From the IMG/VR virus record IMGVR_UViG_3300009177_000029, positions 41,064-105,063 of that record: a stretch of DNA of 64,000 bases; one strand, 5' to 3'. Under the pieces are notes generated by a model that was not told where the DNA came from, searched no databases, and was given only the letters and a program-made list of their open reading frames with translations. Shown one piece after another: positions 43,677-63,407 of the stretch; within the stretch, counting starts at the first letter, position 1, and each line of letters begins with the position of its first letter. Both the position numbers and the translations under genes were made by a program. The DNA comes from a virus.

Positions 43677-46406
43677 TCACTTGTCGAGCTTGTCAATCGG
43701 AAACTTGGCAGCCGGATCAATCCAGAGACTCTTCGTTACGGCCTTCTTCGCAGGCTTGACCGTCTTCACATCCTCTACTGGCGCAGAAGGTGCAAGTTCC
43801 GTCTTGCTAGTACCGATTGATGGCATACTTGGTGCAGTACGTAGTGGCTTTGGGGCTTCTGGCTGCTTCTTGTTGTAGCGACTCTCGAAGCTCTCGCACT
43901 TCACACCCTTGTACGCAGGAATACTATCCCAATGGCTCTGGTGATCCTCAGACCCGTGGTAGTCCTTGTCATGGATGCGACCAGGCTCGTGAAGTGGCAT
44001 TTCCTTTGCCATACGTTCAAAGTCTGCGTGTTCGGGCGAATCCTTCTTTGCCAGGCCCTTGTTGATGTAGTCCTTTGCAAATGAAGAGAACAACTGGTCA
44101 GGTAGTTGACCTTCGTCCTTCGTCTTGTTGTAGTTGTCCAAGCGGTCCATGATGCTATCTGCACCTGGTTCACCAAAGCTTGCACCAGGACGAGGCATTG
44201 GGTTCTTGCCTGCGCCTTGAAGAATGTAGCGTGTAGTCTCTGGTGGGATGTATCCGTGGGTTTCCTGCAAGTGCGATACGTACTTCTGTCGAAGATGCGT
44301 CTGCATAACCTGCCAAGGCTGCAATCCAGATCCTTCCATTGCACGCTCTGTTGCACCCAAGCTGTTGGACTTGAATCGCGTCATGAGGTGGTCTGGCACT
44401 GTCAGCGGCTTACCAGCAGCTTCCATACCGTAATGGATGCCGTTCTTGTGTCCCTGCATACCAGATGCGAAGGACAAGCCGTGGTCGATACCAACAACAT
44501 CAGAGTGGTCTTTGTTGACCACTAAGTTACCCATGTGGCGGTCGTTGTTGTTCATCACCATGTCCATGACCGCAAGCTCACTCATCTTGTTGTCAAACTT
44601 TTCCTTGTCTGGTGCAGCCGTGCGAAGTGCTTCATACGCATTGTTCGTTTTGTTGTTCGAACGTGAACCAGACATATTGGCGTCAGGCGTAGCTACCGTC
44701 TCCTCAGTGCCGAAGGACGCAGGAAGATAGCCATCCTTCCACTGCTGCAAGCTCGTCTCGCCCTTGTGTGTGCCGTGTTCACCAGTGCCAAGGCGTGCAA
44801 CTGTAGGTGGTACGTGTTCAGTCAAACCAAGGCTGTGTGCAAGATTCGATGCACCAACCTCCGACTTGTGACCAGAATCACGAGGCATGTTCGCTGCACC
44901 GTCTGCCCATCCGCCACCCTTGTAGATAGCCTCAGGAAATACAGGCGCAGGTTTCATAACTCCGGAACCGTTGCCTACAATCGTCACCTTGTGACTTACG
45001 TGCTGTCCTGCCAAACCTTCGGATGACAAGTTCTTCGCAGACCCGATGTCGCCCTCGGACAAGTGCGTGAGGGTCACGTCACGTGCGTGTGGTGTGCCGT
45101 TGTACGCAAGAGCCGTTGCGTCCATTGCCTTGTGCTGTGCTTCGATAGCATCTGGTGTTGTTGGCTTGGCACCACGCATCATAGCTTCCTGGTGCTTTTT
45201 CATGATCGCACCACCAGGCTTGTGCATCGTTGCCCCATTGCCGCCATGCTTCATACAGTCCGCGCCACCACCGAACGGACACGAGACATACATCGGACCG
45301 CCACCAGAGCCACCAGGCGTGCCTGAGCCTGGCTTTGGCAAACCGCCCGACGGACGACCTGGACCTGCGTGATTGCCCGGTGCAGCGGCACCTGGAAGCG
45401 ACGGCGTACCTGTGCCTTCCTTCTGATTCGAAGGAGCACCCTTTGGTTCTACTGTTGGTGAGATTCCACCCGAGACGCCAGAGCGTGCCTTTGCCAAGTG
45501 CTCTGCAAAGAGCGACTTGTTGAGCATCGAGAGCTTACCATCAACCCAACCATGTCCTGGTGGGACGTACACAATCGAACACCCACAACTTGGATGTAGT
45601 GGTGGCAAGGTGGTCTTCCAGTGCGTATGTCTACCGTTCTGCTTTGTGTGCGTGACGTCACCATCAGCATTCGAGCCAGCGCCCAAAAGTGTGGAGAGAC
45701 GAAATACACGTGGTTGACCATCAGCACCTGTGTAGTGGGATGTACAGTCCTCACAACAAAGTTGCCCTGGGATGACGCTTACCATCGACTCTGGACCGTC
45801 TGATAGCGCGTAGATACCGACCTTGTTTACGATAGCTTGTGCAGAGCCAGCTACCTTCGCTGCTTGCATAGCCGTTTCAGCCACAATCTTCCAGTTGCGG
45901 CGTTGGCCTGTCTGCAAACGCGATGCCAGGTTAGACGCAAGATCTTGTGCAGTCTTCCTGTAAATGATGGCAAGCGCGGTCTCGTCCGCTACTGTTTGGG
46001 AAACTACCGCCTCAGAGACTGCCTTGCCTAGCACTTGCGATAGCGAAGTATATACACCGTCTGCGATGTCCTGTGCAACACCCTTCATTTGCTGTCCCGC
46101 ACGAAGGCGAGCCTGTTCGACTACCAGCTCTTCGAGCGGTGACAACTTGTGTTGCGATTGAACTTCTTCGTAGTTGAGGTAGCTGTATTCACCGCGCTTG
46201 TAGAGCGCGCGAAACTTGCCCAAAAGATATGACTTGTCCGTCAAGTTCAGCGCTTGACCCATAGGAAGCTTTCCGTACTTCTTGAGTTCGGTTACTTCTG
46301 TTGGACTTAGCGCTGACTCTCCCAAGGTCGCGTATACAAGCCAGTTGGCATGGAGCCTAACAACGCGCTTTAGCTCCTGCATCTTCTGGGAGAACGATTG
46401 GGTCAT
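43677..46406 (-). CDS. MuF-type head protein fused to a kinase-like domain
   Basis: 909 residues. Residues 1-300 match the MuF minor head protein family: a helical start, CCEDC at 217-221 and the HPSCGC motif at 271-276. A 150-residue Gly/Pro/His-rich linker follows. Residues about 455-800 look like a PI3/PI4-kinase or HipA-type fold. A lysine in GVMKP (485) may bind phosphate, NNNDRHMGN (619-627) resembles the catalytic loop with Asp and Asn, and GIDHGLSF (639-646) resembles the metal-binding D-x-G. MuF proteins are packaged in virions and often carry C-terminal toxin or enzyme domains. This kinase may therefore enter the host with DNA. Confidence 0.8.
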   Translation of the reverse strand: MTQSFSQKMQELKRVVRLHANWLVYATLGESALSPTEVTELKKYGKLPMGQALNLTDKSYLLGKFRALYKRGEYSYLNYEEVQSQHKLSPLEELVVEQARLRAGQQMKGVAQDIADGVYTSLSQVLGKAVSEAVVSQTVADETALAIIYRKTAQDLASNLASRLQTGQRRNWKIVAETAMQAAKVAGSAQAIVNKVGIYALSDGPESMVSVIPGQLCCEDCTSHYTGADGQPRVFRLSTLLGAGSNADGDVTHTKQNGRHTHWKTTLPPLHPSCGCSIVYVPPGHGWVDGKLSMLNKSLFAEHLAKARSGVSGGISPTVEPKGAPSNQKEGTGTPSLPGAAAPGNHAGPGRPSGGLPKPGSGTPGGSGGGPMYVSCPFGGGADCMKHGGNGATMHKPGGAIMKKHQEAMMRGAKPTTPDAIEAQHKAMDATALAYNGTPHARDVTLTHLSEGDIGSAKNLSSEGLAGQHVSHKVTIVGNGSGVMKPAPVFPEAIYKGGGWADGAANMPRDSGHKSEVGASNLAHSLGLTEHVPPTVARLGTGEHGTHKGETSLQQWKDGYLPASFGTEETVATPDANMSGSRSNNKTNNAYEALRTAAPDKEKFDNKMSELAVMDMVMNNNDRHMGNLVVNKDHSDVVGIDHGLSFASGMQGHKNGIHYGMEAAGKPLTVPDHLMTRFKSNSLGATERAMEGSGLQPWQVMQTHLRQKYVSHLQETHGYIPPETTRYILQGAGKNPMPRPGASFGEPGADSIMDRLDNYNKTKDEGQLPDQLFSSFAKDYINKGLAKKDSPEHADFERMAKEMPLHEPGRIHDKDYHGSEDHQSHWDSIPAYKGVKCESFESRYNKKQPEAPKPLRTAPSMPSIGTSKTELAPSAPVEDVKTVKPAKKAVTKSLWIDPAAKFPIDKLDK

Positions 46407-55091: not shown

Positions 55092-55131
55092 CAAAAGCAA
55101 AAGGCCCGTAGCCATTGGAGCTACGAGCCTT
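55092..55131 (-). terminator. rho-independent terminator ending the tRNA-Ro region
   Basis: 12-bp stem (AAGGCTCGTAGC with GCTACGGGCCTT on the minus strand, one G-U pair), 7-nt loop, then TTGCTTTTG. It lies 12 bases past tRNA-Gln(TTG) and separates the RNA region from the head operon. Confidence 0.88.
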
Positions 55132-55143
55132 CGTGTTGGTAGA

Positions 55144-55337: not shown

Positions 55338-56918
55338 TCAGAGTGCAACCTGATTGATCTTGTCCGTCCAGAAAGTTGCCGATCCGGTGTTGGACGAGAA
55401 CTCGTTGATTACTTCGAACACGTTGTCCGAGAAACCACCAACATTCAACGTATCCTTGCGGGTCGTTGCCTGCGTCGTGTTCTCGACCTGAATGTCGATG
55501 CAAACCAACTTTGCCTTCGGGTTTCGTGTCTTGAACACATCCCACTCAGACTGTAGGTTTCCGCCGTAGCGTGCTCCCCAGGTGTAGTTGTGTGCCCAGG
55601 ACTCGTTATCCGAGACCATGATGATGAGATCACCTGCCGCCTTCTCACGGTTCAACAATGCAACCGGAGCTGCACAGTTCGTTCCGCCACCAGGCGCCTT
55701 CATGATCTTCTGCGCGTTGGTCATGATGGAGTCGAACGGATTCAACTTCTCACGCCATGCGTCCGTGTGGAACAAGATGACCTCTGCGTCAGGGTTCTTG
55801 CGAAGAACCGATGCTGCCACGAGGGCTGCAACATCCTTGCAAGTCGTCTTCGACGTTGCACCCGCACGGTGACCCGTAACAGGTGAACCCATCGAACCCG
55901 ACACGTCAATCATCACGTAGACCTTGCCTTCGTACTTTGGAACGTTCGCCGTAGCGTGCTCCATTGCCTCTTGCAAAGCGTTCGTGATCTTCGCAGGCAC
56001 CGCAGGGTCTGCGTTCAAGTACGCGGTAAGAAGCTGATAAGGGAAAGCGCGAGCCTTCAAGACCTCATCCTTCGAACCGAGACGATGTGCGATGGTGTTG
56101 ACCATCTTCTGGTTCTTGAGAACGCCGTGACGCTCAAACGTGTTGAGGTTCATGCGCGTCATCATCCAGCCCGCCTTCTCTGCGATGGACGACCACTGCT
56201 TCTCAGTGAGAGGCAAGGACGTCAACATGCGGAAATCAACGTCTGGAACTTCCAGAGAAGTGTTCTTCTTGAAGTTCTCGTACTGCTGGATCACACCAGG
56301 AAGAGCTGCGGACTGTGCATCCGTCAACTTCTTGCCGATGAGGTACGCGTACATAGCCTCACGAGACGCACCTTCTGGCGATGGGTGGACCATCTTGATC
56401 ACGTCACCCAACGAAGGCTTGTCGCCTACGGAGTCACGGAACAAAGAACCGTCCTTACGACCGTTCAACCATGCCTGAATCGCCTTCTTCGGCGCAGAGC
56501 CAAGTGACTTACGTCCAACTGCACCGGAGCGCATGATCTGGACGAAGTTACGAAGCATCTTGCCATTGTCGATGACGCGAGGGAACGTCTTCTTGAAGAG
56601 GTCAGCATCACGCGTCGAAAGAACTGCAAGAAGGAATGCAGGCATGTCCTTCATGAAACCCTTGTCACGAGCGTAGATTGCCGTCTTCGCCAAGAACTCA
56701 GGGGAAACCTTCTGCGCGAGCGCAAGAGTTTCCTTCATCTGACGTTCTGCCGTCGAATAGAACGTGTCGTTGAACGTACCAGTGCATGCATACTGAGCTA
56801 GCGCAGCCTCATCAGCCATTGCGTAAGCCGTACCGCCTGCCTTGTTTACCGCGTCTGGCTTACGAGAAGCCTTGCGAACTGCGGATACACCACCACGAAA
56901 TAGATTTGCGTTTGCCAT
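55338..56918 (-). CDS. Ro60/Rsr-family TROVE-vWA RNA-binding protein
   Basis: 526 residues, full length for the family. Residues about 10-325 form the helical TROVE ring that in Ro60 binds Y RNA on its surface and misfolded RNA ends in its hole. Residues 330-526 form a von Willebrand A domain with an intact MIDAS: DVSGS at 338-342, GGGTN and VSDNES. AAAGGAG precedes the ATG. It lies inside the tRNA region, with tRNA genes on both sides and structured RNAs just upstream. Bacterial Ro (Rsr) works with Y RNA and exonucleases in RNA decay; some mycobacteriophages are known to carry Ro. Here it may act on phage tRNAs, tRNA-like RNAs or host rRNA. Confidence 0.9.
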   Translation of the reverse strand: MANANLFRGGVSAVRKASRKPDAVNKAGGTAYAMADEAALAQYACTGTFNDTFYSTAERQMKETLALAQKVSPEFLAKTAIYARDKGFMKDMPAFLLAVLSTRDADLFKKTFPRVIDNGKMLRNFVQIMRSGAVGRKSLGSAPKKAIQAWLNGRKDGSLFRDSVGDKPSLGDVIKMVHPSPEGASREAMYAYLIGKKLTDAQSAALPGVIQQYENFKKNTSLEVPDVDFRMLTSLPLTEKQWSSIAEKAGWMMTRMNLNTFERHGVLKNQKMVNTIAHRLGSKDEVLKARAFPYQLLTAYLNADPAVPAKITNALQEAMEHATANVPKYEGKVYVMIDVSGSMGSPVTGHRAGATSKTTCKDVAALVAASVLRKNPDAEVILFHTDAWREKLNPFDSIMTNAQKIMKAPGGGTNCAAPVALLNREKAAGDLIIMVSDNESWAHNYTWGARYGGNLQSEWDVFKTRNPKAKLVCIDIQVENTTQATTRKDTLNVGGFSDNVFEVINEFSSNTGSATFWTDKINQVAL

Positions 56919-56986
56919 AGAAACATTCTCCTTTCATCCCGTTGGAGACAACCCAGCACTATGCTGGTATAGCTATTCAGTTTTAA

Positions 56987-57057
56987 GCTGCGTTCCGGAA
57001 TCGAACCGGATTCTCCGCGTTACAAGGGCGGCGCGTCACCATTTACGCTTATGCAGC
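56987..57057 (-). tRNA. tRNA-Thr(TGT)
   Basis: Acceptor GCTGCAT/ACGCAGC, T-loop TTCGATT. Anticodon loop CTTGTAA gives TGT (codon ACA). Pair 31-39 is C/C. Followed by AAAACTGAATAG, also found after tRNA-Gln(CTG). Confidence 0.9.
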
Positions 57058-57088
57058 ATGTTTCCAACTTTCCCGCCGACTTAGTACG

Positions 57089-57152
57089 ACAGCAAGCATC
57101 TCTGACTGCGCGGGTGGAGTTGGCAAACGTCCACAATCAGATAACCTGCTGT
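57089..57152 (-). ncRNA. structured RNA candidate between tRNA-Thr and tRNA-Cys
   Basis: Folds by eye into nested stems: ACAGCA/TGCTGT (6 bp), TCTGATTG/CAGTCAGA (8 bp with one G-U), and a top hairpin TGGA/TCCA with GTT/AAC inside and one bulged C. It has no T-arm or anticodon arm, so it is not a tRNA. Position directly upstream of the Ro gene makes it a Y RNA candidate; identity is unproven. Confidence 0.4.
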
Positions 57153-57157
57153 GTGAA

Positions 57158-57228
57158 GGTGCAAGTGGGAATCGGACCCACCTGTAACAGTTTTGCAGAC
57201 TGCATCGATCCCAGATCGATATTGCACC
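57158..57228 (-). tRNA. tRNA-Cys(GCA)
   Basis: Perfect acceptor GGTGCAA/TTGCACC, T-stem GTGGG/CCCAC with loop TCCGATT, anticodon loop CTGCAAA giving GCA (codon TGC). The D-arm is short (TCGA stem, loop TCTGGGA). Confidence 0.9.
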
Positions 57229-57231
57229 AGA

Positions 57232-57316
57232 TCCCGAGGGTGGACTTAAACCACCGACCTTTAGGCCAAATGTGTGCACAACAGCCTAACGCTCTATTTC
57301 TCTGAGCTACTCGGAA
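57232..57316 (-). ncRNA. tRNA-like RNA with a 19-nt anticodon loop
   Basis: Acceptor TTCCGAG/CTCGGGA, D-arm GCTC/GAGC with loop AGAGAAATA, T-arm GGTGG/CCACC with loop TTTAAGT. The middle arm TTAGG/CCTAA encloses a 19-nt loop (57266-57284) containing the palindrome TGTGCACA, instead of a 7-nt anticodon loop. The D-loop lacks GG and T-loop position 56 is T instead of C; an A at D-loop position 19 could pair with it. Either a tRNA with a small insertion or a decoy or Y-type RNA. Confidence 0.55.
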
Positions 57317-57317
57317 A

Positions 57318-57387
57318 GCGGCTAGCGGGAGTCGAACCCGCGCGTCAAGGTTGGAAGCCTCGCATGCTACCGTAACATCTCAACCGC
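57318..57387 (-). tRNA. tRNA-Gly(TCC)
   Basis: Acceptor GCGGTTG/TAGCCGC with wobbles, T-loop TTCGACT, anticodon loop CTTCCAA giving TCC (codon GGA). One base separates it from the preceding RNA. Confidence 0.9.
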
Positions 57388-57654: not shown

Positions 57655-57668
57655 GTCTTGATTTCACC

Positions 57669-57697
57669 AGTATGACCTCAGGTGCGGAGGTTGTCAA
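57669..57697 (-). promoter_or_regulatory. promoter for the Glu-Gly-Cys-Thr-Ro RNA unit
   Basis: Perfect TTGACA (57692-57697), 17-bp spacer, CATACT (57669-57674). The predicted start lies about 8 bases before tRNA-Glu(CTC). Confidence 0.65.
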
Positions 57698-57891
57698 GGA
57701 ACTTCTCTATAGCCGCGGTTTTGTCCAAAATCGACTGACAGGGCCGATTTCTGTTTGTACATTCCTCTAGTGGCATCAACCCGGGCGTCAACATCCTGCT
57801 TTCCGACTCTGCCCTGTTTGACTTGCTCCCTCCATGGTACGGACGGCTTTTGGCCTCCCATGTCTAGCAGTGGAGCCGCGAACTTCCTCAC
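57694..57891 (-). CDS. possible small basic protein
   Basis: 65 codons from a GTG at 57891 in a gap of about 280 bases that otherwise holds only the promoter. The sequence is basic and Gln/Lys/Arg-rich with no motif. No clear ribosome site, and the end overlaps the -35 box. May not be a gene. Confidence 0.25.
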   Translation of the reverse strand: MRKFAAPLLDMGGQKPSVPWREQVKQGRVGKQDVDARVDATRGMYKQKSALSVDFGQNRGYREVP

Positions 57892-57934
57892 ATCCCAACA
57901 AGTGGGTTAGTGCGTACAACCGAGAAGAAACCAC

Positions 57935-58021
57935 GGAGAGCAGAGGAATCGCACCCCATACGCTTTTACACGTACCCTCTGTTTAGCAAACAGTGCCGAC
58001 TACTAAGTCGAGTTACTCTCC
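57935..58021 (-). tRNA. tRNA-Ser(GCT)
   Basis: 87 bases with a long variable arm (TACG/CGTA). Acceptor GGAGAGT/GCTCTCC with G73, anticodon loop TTGCTAA giving GCT (codon AGC). The T-loop is TGCGATT: position 55 is G instead of T. The D-arm is unusual (CGAC/GTCG with a 6-nt loop). Confidence 0.82.
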
Positions 58022-58028
58022 AAGAACT

Positions 58029-58616
58029 TCACACTGTAGCAGACTTGGAAGCCTGTGCAAGTTCGATCTTGCGAAGTTCCTTTTGCAGCTTTCCTTGGAT
58101 TTGCTTGGCAAATCGCTTCGTCGTACGGGACACCTTGTCCAAGCGCTTGAGAGCAAGACGCTTCTGTAGGTTACCCATGCGATCGATGAAAAGCTTTCCT
58201 TGAAGATGGTCCAACTCGTGTTGGAATGCCACAGACGTGATTCCAGAGAGCCAACGCTCGGTCACCAGGCCGCCTTCGTCTTGGTAGGTGACACGGACCG
58301 ACTCAGCGCGCTTGAGGCGTTCCAGGACGCCAGGGAAGCTGAGACAGCCCTCATTGGAGTCCACCTGGTCCGTGTGGACTGCCAGAATCTGCGGATTGAT
58401 GCACGTGATGTATTCCTGAGATTTGAAGTCACGAATCACAAACATCGAGTACAATGCACCAATCTGGTTGGCAGCGAGACCCTCAGCGCGAAATGCCTTC
58501 GCCGTATCTCTCAAGTCTGCTGACAACTGCGCGATACCCTCGTCAAAGATTTCAACCGGGTCAGTCTGCTGCTTGAGAATAGGATTCGGATAGTGAAGGA
58601 TTTCTTTGATTGCCAT
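58029..58616 (-). CDS. def: peptide deformylase
   Basis: 195 residues. Removes the formyl group from nascent N-terminal methionine, using a metal ion. All three family motifs are intact: GLAANQIG (motif I), EGCLSFPG (motif II) and HELDHLQG (motif III, metal-binding His and catalytic Glu). The C-terminal 40 residues are a basic helical extension. GAGGAG precedes the ATG. It lies between tRNA-Ser genes in the translation-support region. Phage deformylases are known in cyanophages and others. It may restore processing when host enzymes become limiting. Confidence 0.94.
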   Translation of the reverse strand: MAIKEILHYPNPILKQQTDPVEIFDEGIAQLSADLRDTAKAFRAEGLAANQIGALYSMFVIRDFKSQEYITCINPQILAVHTDQVDSNEGCLSFPGVLERLKRAESVRVTYQDEGGLVTERWLSGITSVAFQHELDHLQGKLFIDRMGNLQKRLALKRLDKVSRTTKRFAKQIQGKLQKELRKIELAQASKSATV

Positions 58617-58901: not shown

Positions 58902-58982
58902 GGAAGAAATAGGAGTCGAACCCGACCTGTTACGGCACCCTGTTTTCAAGACAGGTATGGCACCACTGCCATCTTTTCTTCC
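58902..58982 (-). tRNA. tRNA-Ser(TGA)
   Basis: 81 bases, perfect acceptor GGAAGAA/TTCTTCC with G73, anticodon stem CCTGT/ACAGG, loop CTTGAAA giving TGA (codon TCA). The T-loop is TTCGACT but only three T-stem pairs form. Confidence 0.85.
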
Positions 58983-58990
58983 AGGATGTA

Positions 58991-59224
58991 TTATGTAGCA
59001 GACTTCCTTTCGGCACGCAATCGCTTTGTTAGCTTGTAGCGGACAATAGTGCGTGCCAAATGGTCAATCTCAGCCTCAGTCAACTCATGGGAAACATGAG
59101 CGTATTCGCCAAGCATGATCATCTTGATCATGTTCCAGAAAGAGAACCGAGTATACACCTCGATAGATGGAGACTCAGGTTCCTTCCTGTCAATGTAGTG
59201 GTGGTGAAAGCTACTCGTTGTCAT
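58991..59224 (-). CDS. small unknown protein
   Basis: 77 residues from the ATG at 59224 (AGGAG eight bases upstream), overlapping the end of the HNH gene. It is helical in the second half (LTEAEIDHLARTIVRYKLTK). No family recognised. It ends just before tRNA-Ser(TGA). Confidence 0.65.
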   Translation of the reverse strand: MTTSSFHHHYIDRKEPESPSIEVYTRFSFWNMIKMIMLGEYAHVSHELTEAEIDHLARTIVRYKLTKRLRAERKSAT

Positions 59225-59762
59225 TTTCCAACTCCTGGTTCCAGTAGAGGTAGTCCCTCCAACAGTCAGGAGTGTTTGGAAGGGCAATGATGAGCTTCTG
59301 ACGTGGAGTCCAGTCAGGCTTTACCGGCTTCGAACGCAACACCATCCTTGCCTCAGCCGGAGTTCTGTCTGCCTTCTTACCGTTACACCTGATACAGCAT
59401 GTAGCGATGTTGTCCCAGACAGTCTTTCCGCCCTTGGAACGAGGAATCACGTGGTCATAGGTGAGGTTCTGTGTACCTGGCTTGTCACCACAGTATTGAC
59501 ACGTGTACTTGTCACGTGCAAATACGTTGATGCGTGAGAACTTCACACGATGCTTCTTGCCGTTGACGTACTCAAACAAGCGCACGACAGCGGGACACTT
59601 CATGGTGAGTGACATTGAAGTTAGCTCGAAGTCTTCATATTCCTTCAAGACCTCAACCTTGTCTTCGAACCAGAGGATGACTGCACGCTGCCACGAGATC
59701 ACGCGAAGTGGCTCGTAAGTAGAGTTCAACAGCAAAGTTCTGCGCTCTATGATGCTAGTCAT
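59211..59762 (-). CDS. HNH endonuclease
   Basis: 183 residues from the ATG at 59762 (GAGGAGG upstream). An N-terminal LNSTYEPLRVISWQRAVIL segment precedes the nuclease core, as in the bacterial HNH family of this type. The core has YTCQYCG, then LTYDHVIPRSKGGK and NIATCCIRCNGKK: the H-N-H triad plus two zinc CxxC pairs. It may be a homing-type or packaging-related nuclease, or a host-type protein acquired by transfer. It lies inside the tRNA region, a common home for HNH genes. Confidence 0.88.
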   Translation of the reverse strand: MTSIIERRTLLLNSTYEPLRVISWQRAVILWFEDKVEVLKEYEDFELTSMSLTMKCPAVVRLFEYVNGKKHRVKFSRINVFARDKYTCQYCGDKPGTQNLTYDHVIPRSKGGKTVWDNIATCCIRCNGKKADRTPAEARMVLRSKPVKPDWTPRQKLIIALPNTPDCWRDYLYWNQELENDNE

Positions 59763-59777
59763 TGGTTCCTCCTCAAT

Positions 59778-59860
59778 GGACCTGGTGGGAGTTGAACCCA
59801 CACGGTATCGCTACCACAACGTTTTAAGTGTCGTCTGTCTGCCTATTCCATCACAAGTCC
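59778..59860 (-). tRNA. tRNA-Leu(TAA)
   Basis: 83 bases with long variable region, acceptor GGACTTG/CAGGTCC, A73, T-loop TTCAACT, anticodon loop CTTAAAA giving TAA (codon TTA). Pair 31-39 is A/C. Confidence 0.9.
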
Positions 59861-59952: not shown

Positions 59953-60144
59953 TCAATGTCTATTCAGACCACGCCACACCCAATATGCGATGTGATCCAA
60001 CACTTTTGGGTCAAGTTCGTAATCTTTGCAGTAGTTTAGCACTTCTTCGTCTTCTATCCACTCAAGCATAGACTTCCCGCCGTAGTGTGCCATGTACGCC
60101 CACTCAACTAACTTAGCCCTAGCCCTTGCTTGAGAAGTTTCCAC
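59953..60144 (-). CDS. small unknown acidic protein
   Basis: 63 codons from a GTG at 60144, overlapping the end of the hydrolase gene by 37 bases and ending directly at the preceding tRNA. It has a protein-like composition (WAYMAHYGGKSMLEWIEDEE, then VLDHIAYWVWRGL). Weak ribosome site. No family recognised. Confidence 0.5.
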   Translation of the reverse strand: METSQARARAKLVEWAYMAHYGGKSMLEWIEDEEVLNYCKDYELDPKVLDHIAYWVWRGLNRH

Positions 60145-60554
60145 ACTGCCCCTACTCGGTGCTGCCCCGAGCTTCGCGGGTTTAGAAGCCGCTGGCCCTG
60201 CTGATGGCCCATAGAGGCTCGAAGTTCTTTCATCGCTAGCGGCAGATGACGTACCGCTTCCATTGCTTGATCTGTAGCCTCTATTGCGAGGGCTGTCAAG
60301 CTCATACCCATATCCGGCTCGCGGAACAGGGAATGTGCAATGCCGAGAGAGAACAGCTTTCCACTCAGTTCGTTGAGTTCTTTCTCGTCTGCAACAGACA
60401 GGAAACCCAACGTGTTGGATTCAGCATGCCACTCTCGGGCTTGATCTGGATTTTCGAACTTGAACTCAACCAAAGCATGCATGCCTTGCACTGCCTGCGC
60501 ACCCGGAGACAAATCTCGACGAGTTACGACATACAGCTTTTGATTAGTCCGCAT
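60108..60554 (-). CDS. PTH2-type peptidyl-tRNA hydrolase
   Basis: 148 residues. Cleaves peptidyl-tRNA to recycle tRNAs stalled in translation. The first 105 residues follow the PTH2 pattern: KLYVVTRRDLSPGAQAVQGM with the conserved Gln and His (GAQAVQGMHAL), then the DEKELNELSGKLFSLGIAHS stretch, then TALAIEATDQ. PTH2 enzymes are known from archaea and eukaryotes, less often bacteria and phages. The C-terminal 40 residues are an extra Arg/Gln-rich tail. It lies among the tRNA genes, which suggests tRNA recycling. Confidence 0.85.
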   Translation of the reverse strand: MRTNQKLYVVTRRDLSPGAQAVQGMHALVEFKFENPDQAREWHAESNTLGFLSVADEKELNELSGKLFSLGIAHSLFREPDMGMSLTALAIEATDQAMEAVRHLPLAMKELRASMGHQQGQRLLNPRSSGQHRVGAVWKLLKQGLGLS

Positions 60555-61291: not shown

Positions 61292-61297
61292 AGTCAC

Positions 61298-61368
61298 GTA
61301 CCCGGCAGGAATCGAACCCGCATTCGGACGTTCGTAGCGTCAGAGTCTATCCGTTGACGTACAGGTAC
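61298..61368 (-). tRNA. tRNA-Arg(ACG)
   Basis: Acceptor GTACCTG/CGGGTAC, T-loop TTCGATT, D-loop with GG, anticodon loop CTACGAA giving ACG (codon CGT; A34 probably deaminated). Confidence 0.9.
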
Positions 61369-61439
61369 ATTGGTGGTGACGAAAGTGATCGTGAAGGTTT
61401 GATCTTGAAATGATGTATTCACGGTCGGCATTCACCGAA

Positions 61440-61510
61440 GCTGGTACAGGAACTTGCATCCTGATCACATCCATACCAAGGAAGTGTGTCTCTATTTACA
61501 CCTTACCAGC
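61440..61510 (-). tRNA. tRNA-Thr(GGT)
   Basis: Perfect acceptor GCTGGTA/TACCAGC, T-stem CAGGA/TCCTG with loop TGCAAGT (position 55 is G), D-loop AAATAGAG without GG, anticodon loop TTGGTAT giving GGT (codon ACC). The 71-base spacer upstream holds only weak hairpins. Confidence 0.75.
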
Positions 61511-61517
61511 GATTGGT

Positions 61518-61596
61518 CAGTCGGACGGGATTTCCACCCGTAAACTCTATGTTCTAGGCATAGTGTCTTTGCCATTGCCAGTCTCGCGACCGACTA
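61518..61596 (-). ncRNA. tRNA-Leu-like RNA with C33 and TAG at the anticodon position
   Basis: Acceptor TAGTCGG/CCGACTG, T-stem ACGGG/CCCGT with loop TGGAAAT, perfect anticodon stem CTATG/CATAG with loop CCTAGAA. The universal T33 is C and the T-loop lacks TTC. The D region resembles the local Leu tRNAs but the long variable arm is missing. A regular tRNA-Leu(TAG) exists nearby, so this may be a decayed copy or a decoy. Confidence 0.5.
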
Positions 61597-61615
61597 ACTT
61601 AGACTACCGGCTGAT

Positions 61616-61949: not shown

Positions 61950-61961
61950 TACAAGATTGGT

Positions 61962-62061
61962 GGAGCGTGCCGGATTCTAACCAGCTCTCTACCTTGCCCA
62001 TTGAAGGGCCAGGTTGGGACTTCGCCATACTTAGTATGTGCTTACATTACACCAACGCCCC
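61962..62061 (-). ncRNA. 100-nt tRNA-like RNA without an anticodon arm
   Basis: Acceptor GGGGCGT/ACGCTCC, D-like arm GTG/CAC with loop TAATGTAAG, and T-arm GCTGG/CCGGC with loop TTAGAAT. In place of the anticodon arm are a tiny CATAC-TAA-GTATG hairpin and a longer GCCC/GGGC hairpin. T-loop position 56 is A instead of C, and T at D-loop position 19 could pair with it. Too short for a tmRNA. Candidate tRNA mimic. Confidence 0.5.
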
Positions 62062-62075
62062 GAAAACATGTGAGG

Positions 62076-62582: not shown

Positions 62583-62651
62583 ATTAGTTAGTGACGAGAG
62601 TGACCGAGTTGTTTAGCCTAGCACTGGCAGCCCCGTTTGTTTAGAACTGAT

Positions 62652-62715
62652 GGAGCTTACGGGAGTTGCACCCGCGTCGGATCATATTCAGTGATGTAAA
62701 CCCAATCGAGCATTC
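62652..62715 (-). ncRNA. degenerate tRNA-Phe-like element
   Basis: T-stem GCGGG/CCCGT with loop TGCAACT and an anticodon-like arm CATCA/TGATC with loop CTGAATA (GAA at the anticodon place). The 3' acceptor strand AAGCTCC finds no good 5' partner and the D-arm is unclear. A complete tRNA-Phe(GAA) lies nearby. Probably a decayed tRNA. The 70 bases upstream hold nothing I can identify. Confidence 0.35.
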
Positions 62716-62720
62716 ACTAT

Positions 62721-62802
62721 GGTTGAGGAAGGAATCGAACCTACTGTTCCCGAAGGAGGCGGTTTTACAGACCGCTGCGCCGACCATTGACGCGTCTCAA
62801 CC
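62721..62802 (-). tRNA. tRNA-Tyr(GTA)
   Basis: 82 bases with variable arm, perfect acceptor GGTTGAG/CTCAACC, T-loop TTCGATT, perfect anticodon stem GCGGT/ACCGC, loop CTGTAAA giving GTA (codon TAC). Confidence 0.93.
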
Positions 62803-62808
62803 AGATAT

Positions 62809-63159: not shown

Positions 63160-63204
63160 GAAATCAATGACCCTATTCAGTTTTCAAATGGTCTTTCGAC
63201 CTAC

Positions 63205-63274
63205 TCCGACGCAAGGAATCGAACCTCGATTAACGGTTTCAGAGACCGCTGTCCTGCCTTTAGACGAAATCGGA
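63205..63274 (-). tRNA. tRNA-Gln(CTG)
   Basis: Acceptor TCCGATT/CGTCGGA (one mismatch), T-loop TTCGATT, D-arm as in tRNA-Gln(TTG), anticodon loop CTCTGAA giving CTG (codon CAG). Confidence 0.92.
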
Positions 63275-63278
63275 ATGT

Positions 63279-63360
63279 ATGTGACGAAAAATGTAGAGAG
63301 GTAGTGCGGGCTTGCGGCCCGCGTATCTAAACGCGATGTACTCCCCACGAGCATTCACAT
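63279..63360 (-). other. structured spacer between tRNA-Gln and tRNA-Lys
   Basis: Ends pair as ATGTGA/TCACAT; inside are a GCGGGC/GCCCGC hairpin with CGCAA loop and a competing CGCGT/ACGCG hairpin. No T-loop or anticodon consensus. A further TGTCG/CGACA hairpin lies at 63382-63400. May be an RNA gene or only processing hairpins. Confidence 0.35.
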
Positions 63361-63407
63361 TGGTATCTCATTGTTTAGCGTTGTCGTGAGAATCGCGACA
63401 CTTTTAT

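What the first reader, a model, noticed from the sequence alone, without database searches (positions are those of the whole stretch)
55338..57316. Phage Ro60 protein embedded in a tRNA and tRNA-like RNA region
A full-length TROVE-vWA protein with intact MIDAS sits inside the tRNA array. Within 400 bases upstream are two non-tRNA structured RNAs (57089-57152 and 57232-57316). Bacterial Ro proteins act with Y RNAs that contain tRNA-like modules. This could be a phage Ro-RNP that sorts, protects or degrades tRNAs or rRNA during infection.
Basis: partly seen in the sequence, partly recalled or inferred. Interest (0 to 1): 0.78.

Follow-up and report, generated by a model that had tools for sequence, protein, structure and literature searches.

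The report
Phage Ro60 with three Y RNAs

Summary
The Ro60 gene is real: 526 aa, TROVE plus vWA with intact MIDAS, and its predicted structure matches solved Ro60s, including one from Thermus phage phiLo. 57231-57316 is an aberrant, tRNA-Asn-like tRNA. 57089-57152 is a strong but unexplained hairpin.

The likely partners lie 4.5-6.4 kb upstream on the same strand, between tRNA genes: Y1 61373-61438, Y2 63278-63361, Y3 62588-62720. I found them by deriving the Ro-binding module from related Ro60 loci. Covariance models that never saw this phage recover Y2 (49.7 bits), Y1 (36.3) and Y3 (32.3, with a degenerate permuted tRNA-like module). The module strongly covaries. All 176 hits in 80 bacterial Ro60 loci are on the Ro60 strand, and several elements coincide with Rfam YrlA. 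Cultured Myxococcus phage Mx1 has two more, one annotated as a protein.

Phage Ro60 and phage Y RNAs are already known in general, so this is a new member of a known kind. RNA binding, processing out of tRNA precursors, and a role in tRNA triage are inferred. None of the window's Y RNAs reaches Rfam's YrlA threshold.

The parts
55338..56918 (-). Ro60/Rsr-like protein, TROVE + vWA, 526 aa
   Evidence: profile match to D. radiodurans Rsr 2NVO E=2.8e-32; AlphaFold2 pLDDT 88.7, pTM 0.86; Foldseek to Ro60 1yvp, 9nfa, 2nvo, and phage phiLo Ro60 9l5y
61373..61438 (-). Y RNA candidate Y1: Ro-binding module only, short loop; lies between tRNA-Thr(GGT) 61439-61510 and tRNA-Arg(ACG) 61296-61369 with 2 and about 5 spare bases
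   Evidence: model R2 36.3 bits, E=1.5e-8 over the window; fold
63278..63361 (-). Y RNA candidate Y2: Ro-binding module carrying two small hairpins; 3' end 2-3 bases before tRNA-Gln(CTG) 63203-63275
   Evidence: model R2 49.7 bits, E=1e-12 over the window; descriptor hit; fold
62588..62720 (-). Y RNA candidate Y3: Ro-binding module carrying a permuted tRNA-like domain (T-arm, capped acceptor-like stem, D-arm); begins right after tRNA-Tyr 62719-62803
   Evidence: descriptor hit; best full-length hit of model R3, 32.3 bits, E=2.4e-6 over 10 kb; unconstrained minimum-energy fold shows all five helices
57231..57316 (-). Aberrant tRNA, most like this phage's own tRNA-Asn, with about 12 extra bases after GUU in the anticodon loop; not a Y RNA
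   Evidence: Rfam tRNA 46.5 bits; best pairwise match is tRNA-Asn; no Y module
57089..57152 (-). Stable 64-nt hairpin with an internal loop, 171 bases upstream of the Ro60 start; role unknown; not matched by the Y models
   Evidence: z=-3.85; no match
55100..55132 (-). Terminator-like hairpin after Ro60 and tRNA-Thr(CGT)/tRNA-Gln(TTG): likely end of the Ro60 unit
   Evidence: 14-pair stem followed by T-rich tail; consensus match only

Best explanation
The phage makes its own Ro60 ribonucleoproteins. The Ro60 ring binds the conserved outer/inner helix module of three phage Y RNAs. The Y RNAs are transcribed with the tRNA array and probably cut out by the same enzymes that free the tRNAs, because they sit 0-5 bases from tRNA ends. 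Y3 presents a permuted tRNA mimic that, as in bacterial YrlA, could tether a ribonuclease (host PNPase) or compete with tRNA-cutting enzymes. Y1 and Y2 lack a recognisable tRNA module and would occupy or gate the ring. The most likely job is sorting of damaged or misfolded tRNAs and other structured RNAs during infection. Shown here: the protein's family and fold, and the Y RNAs by homology, covariation and genomic linkage. Inferred: binding, processing, partner nuclease and substrates. The confidence given is for the identity of the RNP and its Y RNAs; for the proposed job alone it is about 0.4.
For: Protein. Y RNAs: in 73 distinct Ro60 loci other than the window a structural descriptor finds 136 hits on the Ro60 strand against 5 on the other strand and 4.7 expected per strand from shuffles (this count still includes the second assembly of this same phage, L002). 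In 26 modules from relatives 96.4% of cells pair, and covariation is 1.00 against 0.23 shuffled and at most 0.23 when slid. Models built without this phage or Mx1 find Y2 and Y1 and Y3. In 80 bacterial Ro60 loci, none used to train R2, all 176 hits are on the Ro60 strand, and descriptor hits share start points with above-threshold Rfam YrlA hits (L125 7815 and 8025, L107 7860 and 8076). Mx1, a cultured phage, has two such RNAs between tRNAs (L001 255-380, 58 bits; 607-710). tRNA-like module: 31 permuted examples covary, 0.72 against 0.19. The genome also has an RNA-ligase homologue, consistent with an RNA-damage setting. What bacterial Rsr/YrlA does with PNPase: PMC8394870, PMC7790460.
Against: No expression or binding data. 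Y3's folding energy is no better than shuffles (z=-0.42) and Y1's is modest (z=-1.5). None of the three reaches the Rfam YrlA threshold, and Y3 gives no YrlA match even at E=10; its D-arm is degenerate. The training modules were picked by a descriptor that demands pairing, which inflates the covariation count. Thirty of 72 phage-side loci show no descriptor hit within the flank examined, though one search recovers some. No near relative of this phage exists to test conservation of its own three RNAs: L002 is the same phage, 1 difference in 17.6 kb.
Confidence: 0.72

Rival explanations
1. One reading: the hairpin 57089-57152 and/or the tRNA-like 57231-57316, next to the Ro60 gene, are its RNA partners.
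For: Closeness to the gene; the hairpin is very stable (z=-3.85) and, like Y RNAs, is a long stem with an internal loop.
Against: Neither carries the conserved Ro-binding module; 57231-57316 is a tRNA by Rfam; the only YrlA overlap is a 23-bit artefact of tandem tRNAs.
Confidence: 0.06
2. Same RNP, different job: the phage Y RNAs act mainly as decoys or shields against host tRNA-cutting defences (anticodon or elbow nucleases), with Ro60 stabilising them, rather than as a degradation machine.
For: They sit inside an array of more than 30 tRNAs in a phage that also has an RNA ligase homologue; the YrlA authors suggest competitive inhibition of an anticodon nuclease as one role (PMC7790460).
Against: Only Y3 has a tRNA-like module and it lacks an anticodon loop; Y1 and Y2 have none; no defence gene or nuclease was tested.
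Confidence: 0.2
3. Ro60 works alone as an RNA-quality-control ring, and the Y-motif elements are only spacers or processing signals of the tRNA transcript.
For: The elements abut tRNA genes on one or both sides; two of the three lack tRNA-like modules.
Against: The same module follows Ro60, not tRNAs: it occurs near Ro60 in many loci with no ARAGORN tRNA at all (L005, L026, L033, L042, L045, L049, L058, L071, L073) and in bacterial chromosomes, always on the Ro60 strand.
Confidence: 0.05
4. About the hairpin only: 57089-57152 is a cis element of the Ro60 message or a processing signal between tRNA-Cys and tRNA-Thr, unrelated to Y RNAs.
For: It lies between two tRNAs upstream of Ro60, has no T-run (not called as a terminator) and no Y module; a promoter-like site lies upstream at 57697-57669.
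Against: No homologue to test conservation; nothing shows regulation.
Confidence: 0.5

Closest known systems
Bacterial Rsr (Ro60) with Y RNA / YrlA (Deinococcus radiodurans, Salmonella; RYPER complex with PNPase)
   Same: TROVE + vWA protein (2NVO, E=2.8e-32); same-strand RNAs with a terminal Ro-binding stem; at least one RNA with T-arm, acceptor-like stem and D-arm in permuted order
   Different: All three window RNAs fall below the Rfam YrlA threshold; they sit inside a tRNA array 4.5-6.4 kb from the gene; no RtcB in this genome and only in 2 of 40 related records
Ro-like proteins of actinophages (e.g. Mycobacterium phage Myrna) and reported mycobacteriophage Y RNAs
   Same: Phage-borne Ro60; Y RNAs reported bioinformatically in mycobacteriophages (as cited in PMC12282133)
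   Different: Only 22-26% identical; the Y model of this group finds nothing near Myrna, Streptomyces, Vibrio, Thermus or halovirus Ro genes
Myxococcus phage Mx1
   Same: Ro60 47.7% identical, large tRNA array, two Y RNAs between tRNAs
   Different: Different order of genes; its Y RNA at 45521-45624 of OR576727.2 is annotated as a protein (WNM70101.1); it also has a tmRNA
Listeria phage CKA15 / P100 Rsr-like gene with highly transcribed small RNAs
   Same: Authors suspect Y RNAs near an Rsr homologue (PMC12282133)
   Different: No hit of our models in P100 1-75 kb

Membership tests
Ro60 / Rsr | TROVE domain | tested here: met
   PF05731 32.1 bits, cut-off 23; full-length match to Rsr 2NVO
Ro60 / Rsr | C-terminal vWA domain with MIDAS | tested here: met
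   PF25045 65.4 bits; D338, S340, S342, T413, D437 invariant
Ro60 / Rsr | Ring fold of Ro60 | tested here: met
   AlphaFold2 pTM 0.86; Foldseek E about 1e-20 to 1yvp/9nfa/2i91, TM 0.70-0.75
Ro60 / Rsr | Y-RNA-contacting residues (Xenopus K170, R174, H187; recalled from memory) | tested here: inconclusive
   Profile alignment puts H178 on H187, but G165 on R174 and a variable position on K170
Ro60 / Rsr | Binds Y RNA and 3' ends of misfolded RNA | not testable with these tools
   needs biochemistry
Bacterial Y RNA (broad class) | 5'/3' terminal stem with conserved Ro-binding module | tested here: met
   Y1, Y2 by model R2; Y3 by descriptor and R3
Bacterial Y RNA (broad class) | Encoded near a Ro60 gene | tested here: met
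   4.5-6.4 kb upstream, same strand, no other significant R2 hit in the 169 kb record
Bacterial Y RNA (broad class) | At least one RNA with a tRNA-like domain | tested here: met
   Y3 only, degenerate D-arm; Y1 and Y2 have none
Rfam YrlA RF02553 | Gathering score 69 | tested here: not met
   no match to Y1-Y3 among the E<=10 hits; best overlap anywhere 23.4 bits, over tRNAs
YrlA | Tethers PNPase; modified by DusA/TruB | not testable with these tools
   no PNPase-type (RNase PH) gene in the phage, so a host enzyme would be needed
rsr-yrlBA-rtcBA RNA repair operon | RtcB ligase encoded with Rsr | tested here: not met
   absent from G000; 2 of 40 related records

The most novel reading that the evidence does not exclude
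Phages of this group have turned the bacterial Ro60/Y RNA pair into a multi-RNA tRNA-triage system: several Y RNAs with different heads, released from tRNA precursors by tRNA-processing enzymes, let one Ro60 ring choose between shielding, tethering to a nuclease, or decoying tRNA-cutting defences.
Probability: 0.22. Interest if true: 0.78.

Novelty: new member of a known kind. Interest (0 to 1): 0.52.

Why it matters
It gives exact coordinates for a phage Y RNA set that current annotation misses (Rfam below threshold, one annotated as a protein in Mx1), plus a covarying model that finds about 100 more near phage Ro60 genes. Since Mx1 is a cultured phage with the same arrangement, the open question of what a phage wants with Ro60 becomes directly testable.

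Tried and rejected
MAFFT alignments of whole short Y RNAs (A2-A4) misregistered the inner helix; replaced by equal-length modules (A5, A6). The noncoding gap 57655-57933 was folded as a possible Y RNA; it holds no Y module. The YrlA hit at 57259-57361 was rejected as a tandem-tRNA artefact. Model searches with filters off lose RNAs with long inserts, so default filters were used for the Y calls. Energy z-scores do not separate Y RNAs here. RtcB, PNPase and Rnl1 in the phage: none found (the Rnl1 search had no positive control). Test of the model on Listeria P100 and five distant Ro phages: no hits. Chen et al. 2014 (RNA) is not held, so its phage list was not checked directly.

Full report
What was checked. 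The ORF 55338-56918(-) encodes 526 aa with Pfam vWA_Ro60 and TROVE domains. A profile of six homologues finds D. radiodurans Rsr (E=2.8e-32), human and Xenopus Ro60 in the PDB. The AlphaFold2 model (pLDDT 88.7, pTM 0.86) matches solved Ro60s at TM 0.70-0.75, and also the Ro60 of Thermus phage phiLo (9l5y). MIDAS residues are invariant in 47 homologues. The window lies in a 169,063-base IMG/VR virus record. The nearest named relative is Myxococcus phage Mx1, 47.7% identical in Ro60. The locus is confirmed by a second assembly, L002, with one difference in 17.6 kb.

The coordinates are good but the reading is not. 57231-57316 is a tRNA by Rfam (46.5 bits). It aligns best with this phage's own tRNA-Asn and seems to carry about 12 extra bases after GUU in the anticodon loop (the loop assignment is my reading of the sequence). 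57089-57152 is a 64-nt hairpin much more stable than shuffles (z=-3.85), with no family match.

How the real candidates were found. Reading the flanks of related Ro60 genes showed a recurring pattern: outer helix, [A/G]ATGC, inner helix, TACAT, variable insert, inner helix..YTTG, outer helix. A descriptor for this pattern gave 136 hits on the Ro60 strand of 73 distinct loci, 5 on the other strand, and 4.7 expected per strand by chance. Module alignments from relatives, without the window or Mx1, show 96.4% paired cells, double-sided changes in 13 of 14 pairs, and a covariation score of 1.00 against 0.23 for shuffles. Since the modules were chosen by a pairing rule, that number is inflated. The strand bias and the independent searches below are the cleaner evidence.

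Independent tests. Model R2 finds in the window Y2 63278-63361(-) at 49.7 bits and Y1 61373-61438(-) at 36.3 bits; the only other window match is an 11-bit hit (E=0.87) to the 5' arm of Y3. In the rest of the genome it finds nothing significant. Over 78 sources on the phage side all 120 matches (some of them training members) are on the Ro60 strand. Over 80 bacterial Ro60 loci, none used in training R2, all 176 are on the Ro60 strand. In bacteria the descriptor hits share start points with Rfam YrlA hits above threshold, which identifies the family. Model R3, built from 31 longer RNAs with T-arm, acceptor-like stem and D-arm in permuted order (covariation 0.72 against 0.19), has Y3 62588-62720(-) as its best hit in the window, full length, 32.3 bits. 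Its unconstrained minimum-energy fold shows the same helices, although the energy itself is not remarkable.

Anatomy. Y1 lies 2 bases after tRNA-Thr(GGT) and about 5 before tRNA-Arg(ACG). Y2 ends 2-3 bases before tRNA-Gln(CTG). Y3 starts at the end of tRNA-Tyr. This suggests, but does not show, release by tRNA-processing enzymes. Y1 has only a small loop, Y2 carries two hairpins, and Y3 a degenerate permuted tRNA mimic. The Ro60 unit appears to run to a terminator-like site at 55132-55100, and promoter-like sites lie upstream of the array at 63810-63783 and 63718-63691 (consensus only).

Comparison. Bacterial YrlA is defined by a terminal Ro-binding stem and a D/T/acceptor-like domain, and tethers Rsr to PNPase (PMC8394870). 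In Salmonella it sits with RtcB (PMC7790460). Here RtcB is absent, no PNPase-type gene was found, and an RNA ligase homologue lies about 2 kb left of the window. Phage Y RNAs have been suggested in mycobacteriophages and Listeria phage CKA15 (PMC12282133), and TROVE proteins in some jumbo phages (PMC7824862). A tree of 56 Ro60s puts the window with two phage sequences (99/94 support), and needs at least four changes between phage and bacterial carriers, so the gene has moved repeatedly.

Verdict. It is a new member of a known kind. Its value is the set of exact Y RNAs, the covariance model, and a cultured phage in which to test function.

Noticed in passing
57231-57316 (-): tRNA-Asn-like gene with about 12 extra bases after GUU in the anticodon loop and no GG in the D-loop (T-loop TTTAAGT); could be a non-translating tRNA or decoy.
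   Followed up: partly
57089-57152 (-): Very stable hairpin upstream of Ro60 with no family match and no relative to compare.
   Followed up: partly
L001 607-710 (Mx1, OR576727.2 about 45521-45624): Y RNA annotated as a hypothetical protein CDS (WNM70101.1); a second, clearer Y RNA at L001 255-380 is not annotated.
   Followed up: yes
L034 8238-8373, L084 8085-8210, L067 4179-4307: Y RNAs whose insert reads D-arm then T-arm, as in an ordinary tRNA, instead of the permuted order; by a simple pattern rule only.
   Followed up: partly
L059, L041, L042, L067, L084: Some phage Ro60 loci carry about 7-12 Y RNAs each; L019 10617-11101 has four nearly identical copies at a 142-base period.
   Followed up: partly
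61439-61510, 57934-58022, 58902-58982 (-): tRNAs missed by ARAGORN: probably Thr(GGT), Ser(GCT), Ser(TGA) from Rfam hits and anticodon loops.
   Followed up: partly
61512-61606 and about 61961-62066 (-): Two further tRNA-like stretches with CCA ends, not called by ARAGORN or Rfam.
   Followed up: no
58029-58616, 60108-60554, 59211-59801 (-): Peptide deformylase, peptidyl-tRNA hydrolase PTH2 and an HNH endonuclease between the tRNAs: a translation-support neighbourhood.
   Followed up: partly
G000:C1:38367-38930 (-), just left of the window: RNA_ligase (PF09414) homologue, 47.6 bits, with a KLHGTS motif.
   Followed up: partly
L001 1732-2109 (Mx1): Phage-encoded tmRNA, 117.7 bits; none found in this phage.
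   Followed up: no
L003 7651-7722: tRNA with a CTA (amber-reading) anticodon just upstream of Ro60 in a related phage; 52 bits.
   Followed up: no
L009 (OR845705.1, 'Escherichia phage ECO95 1-6-1'): 1.7 kb contig with a Ro60 of this group and a Y RNA at 877-944; probably another phage or bacterium in the sample.
   Followed up: no
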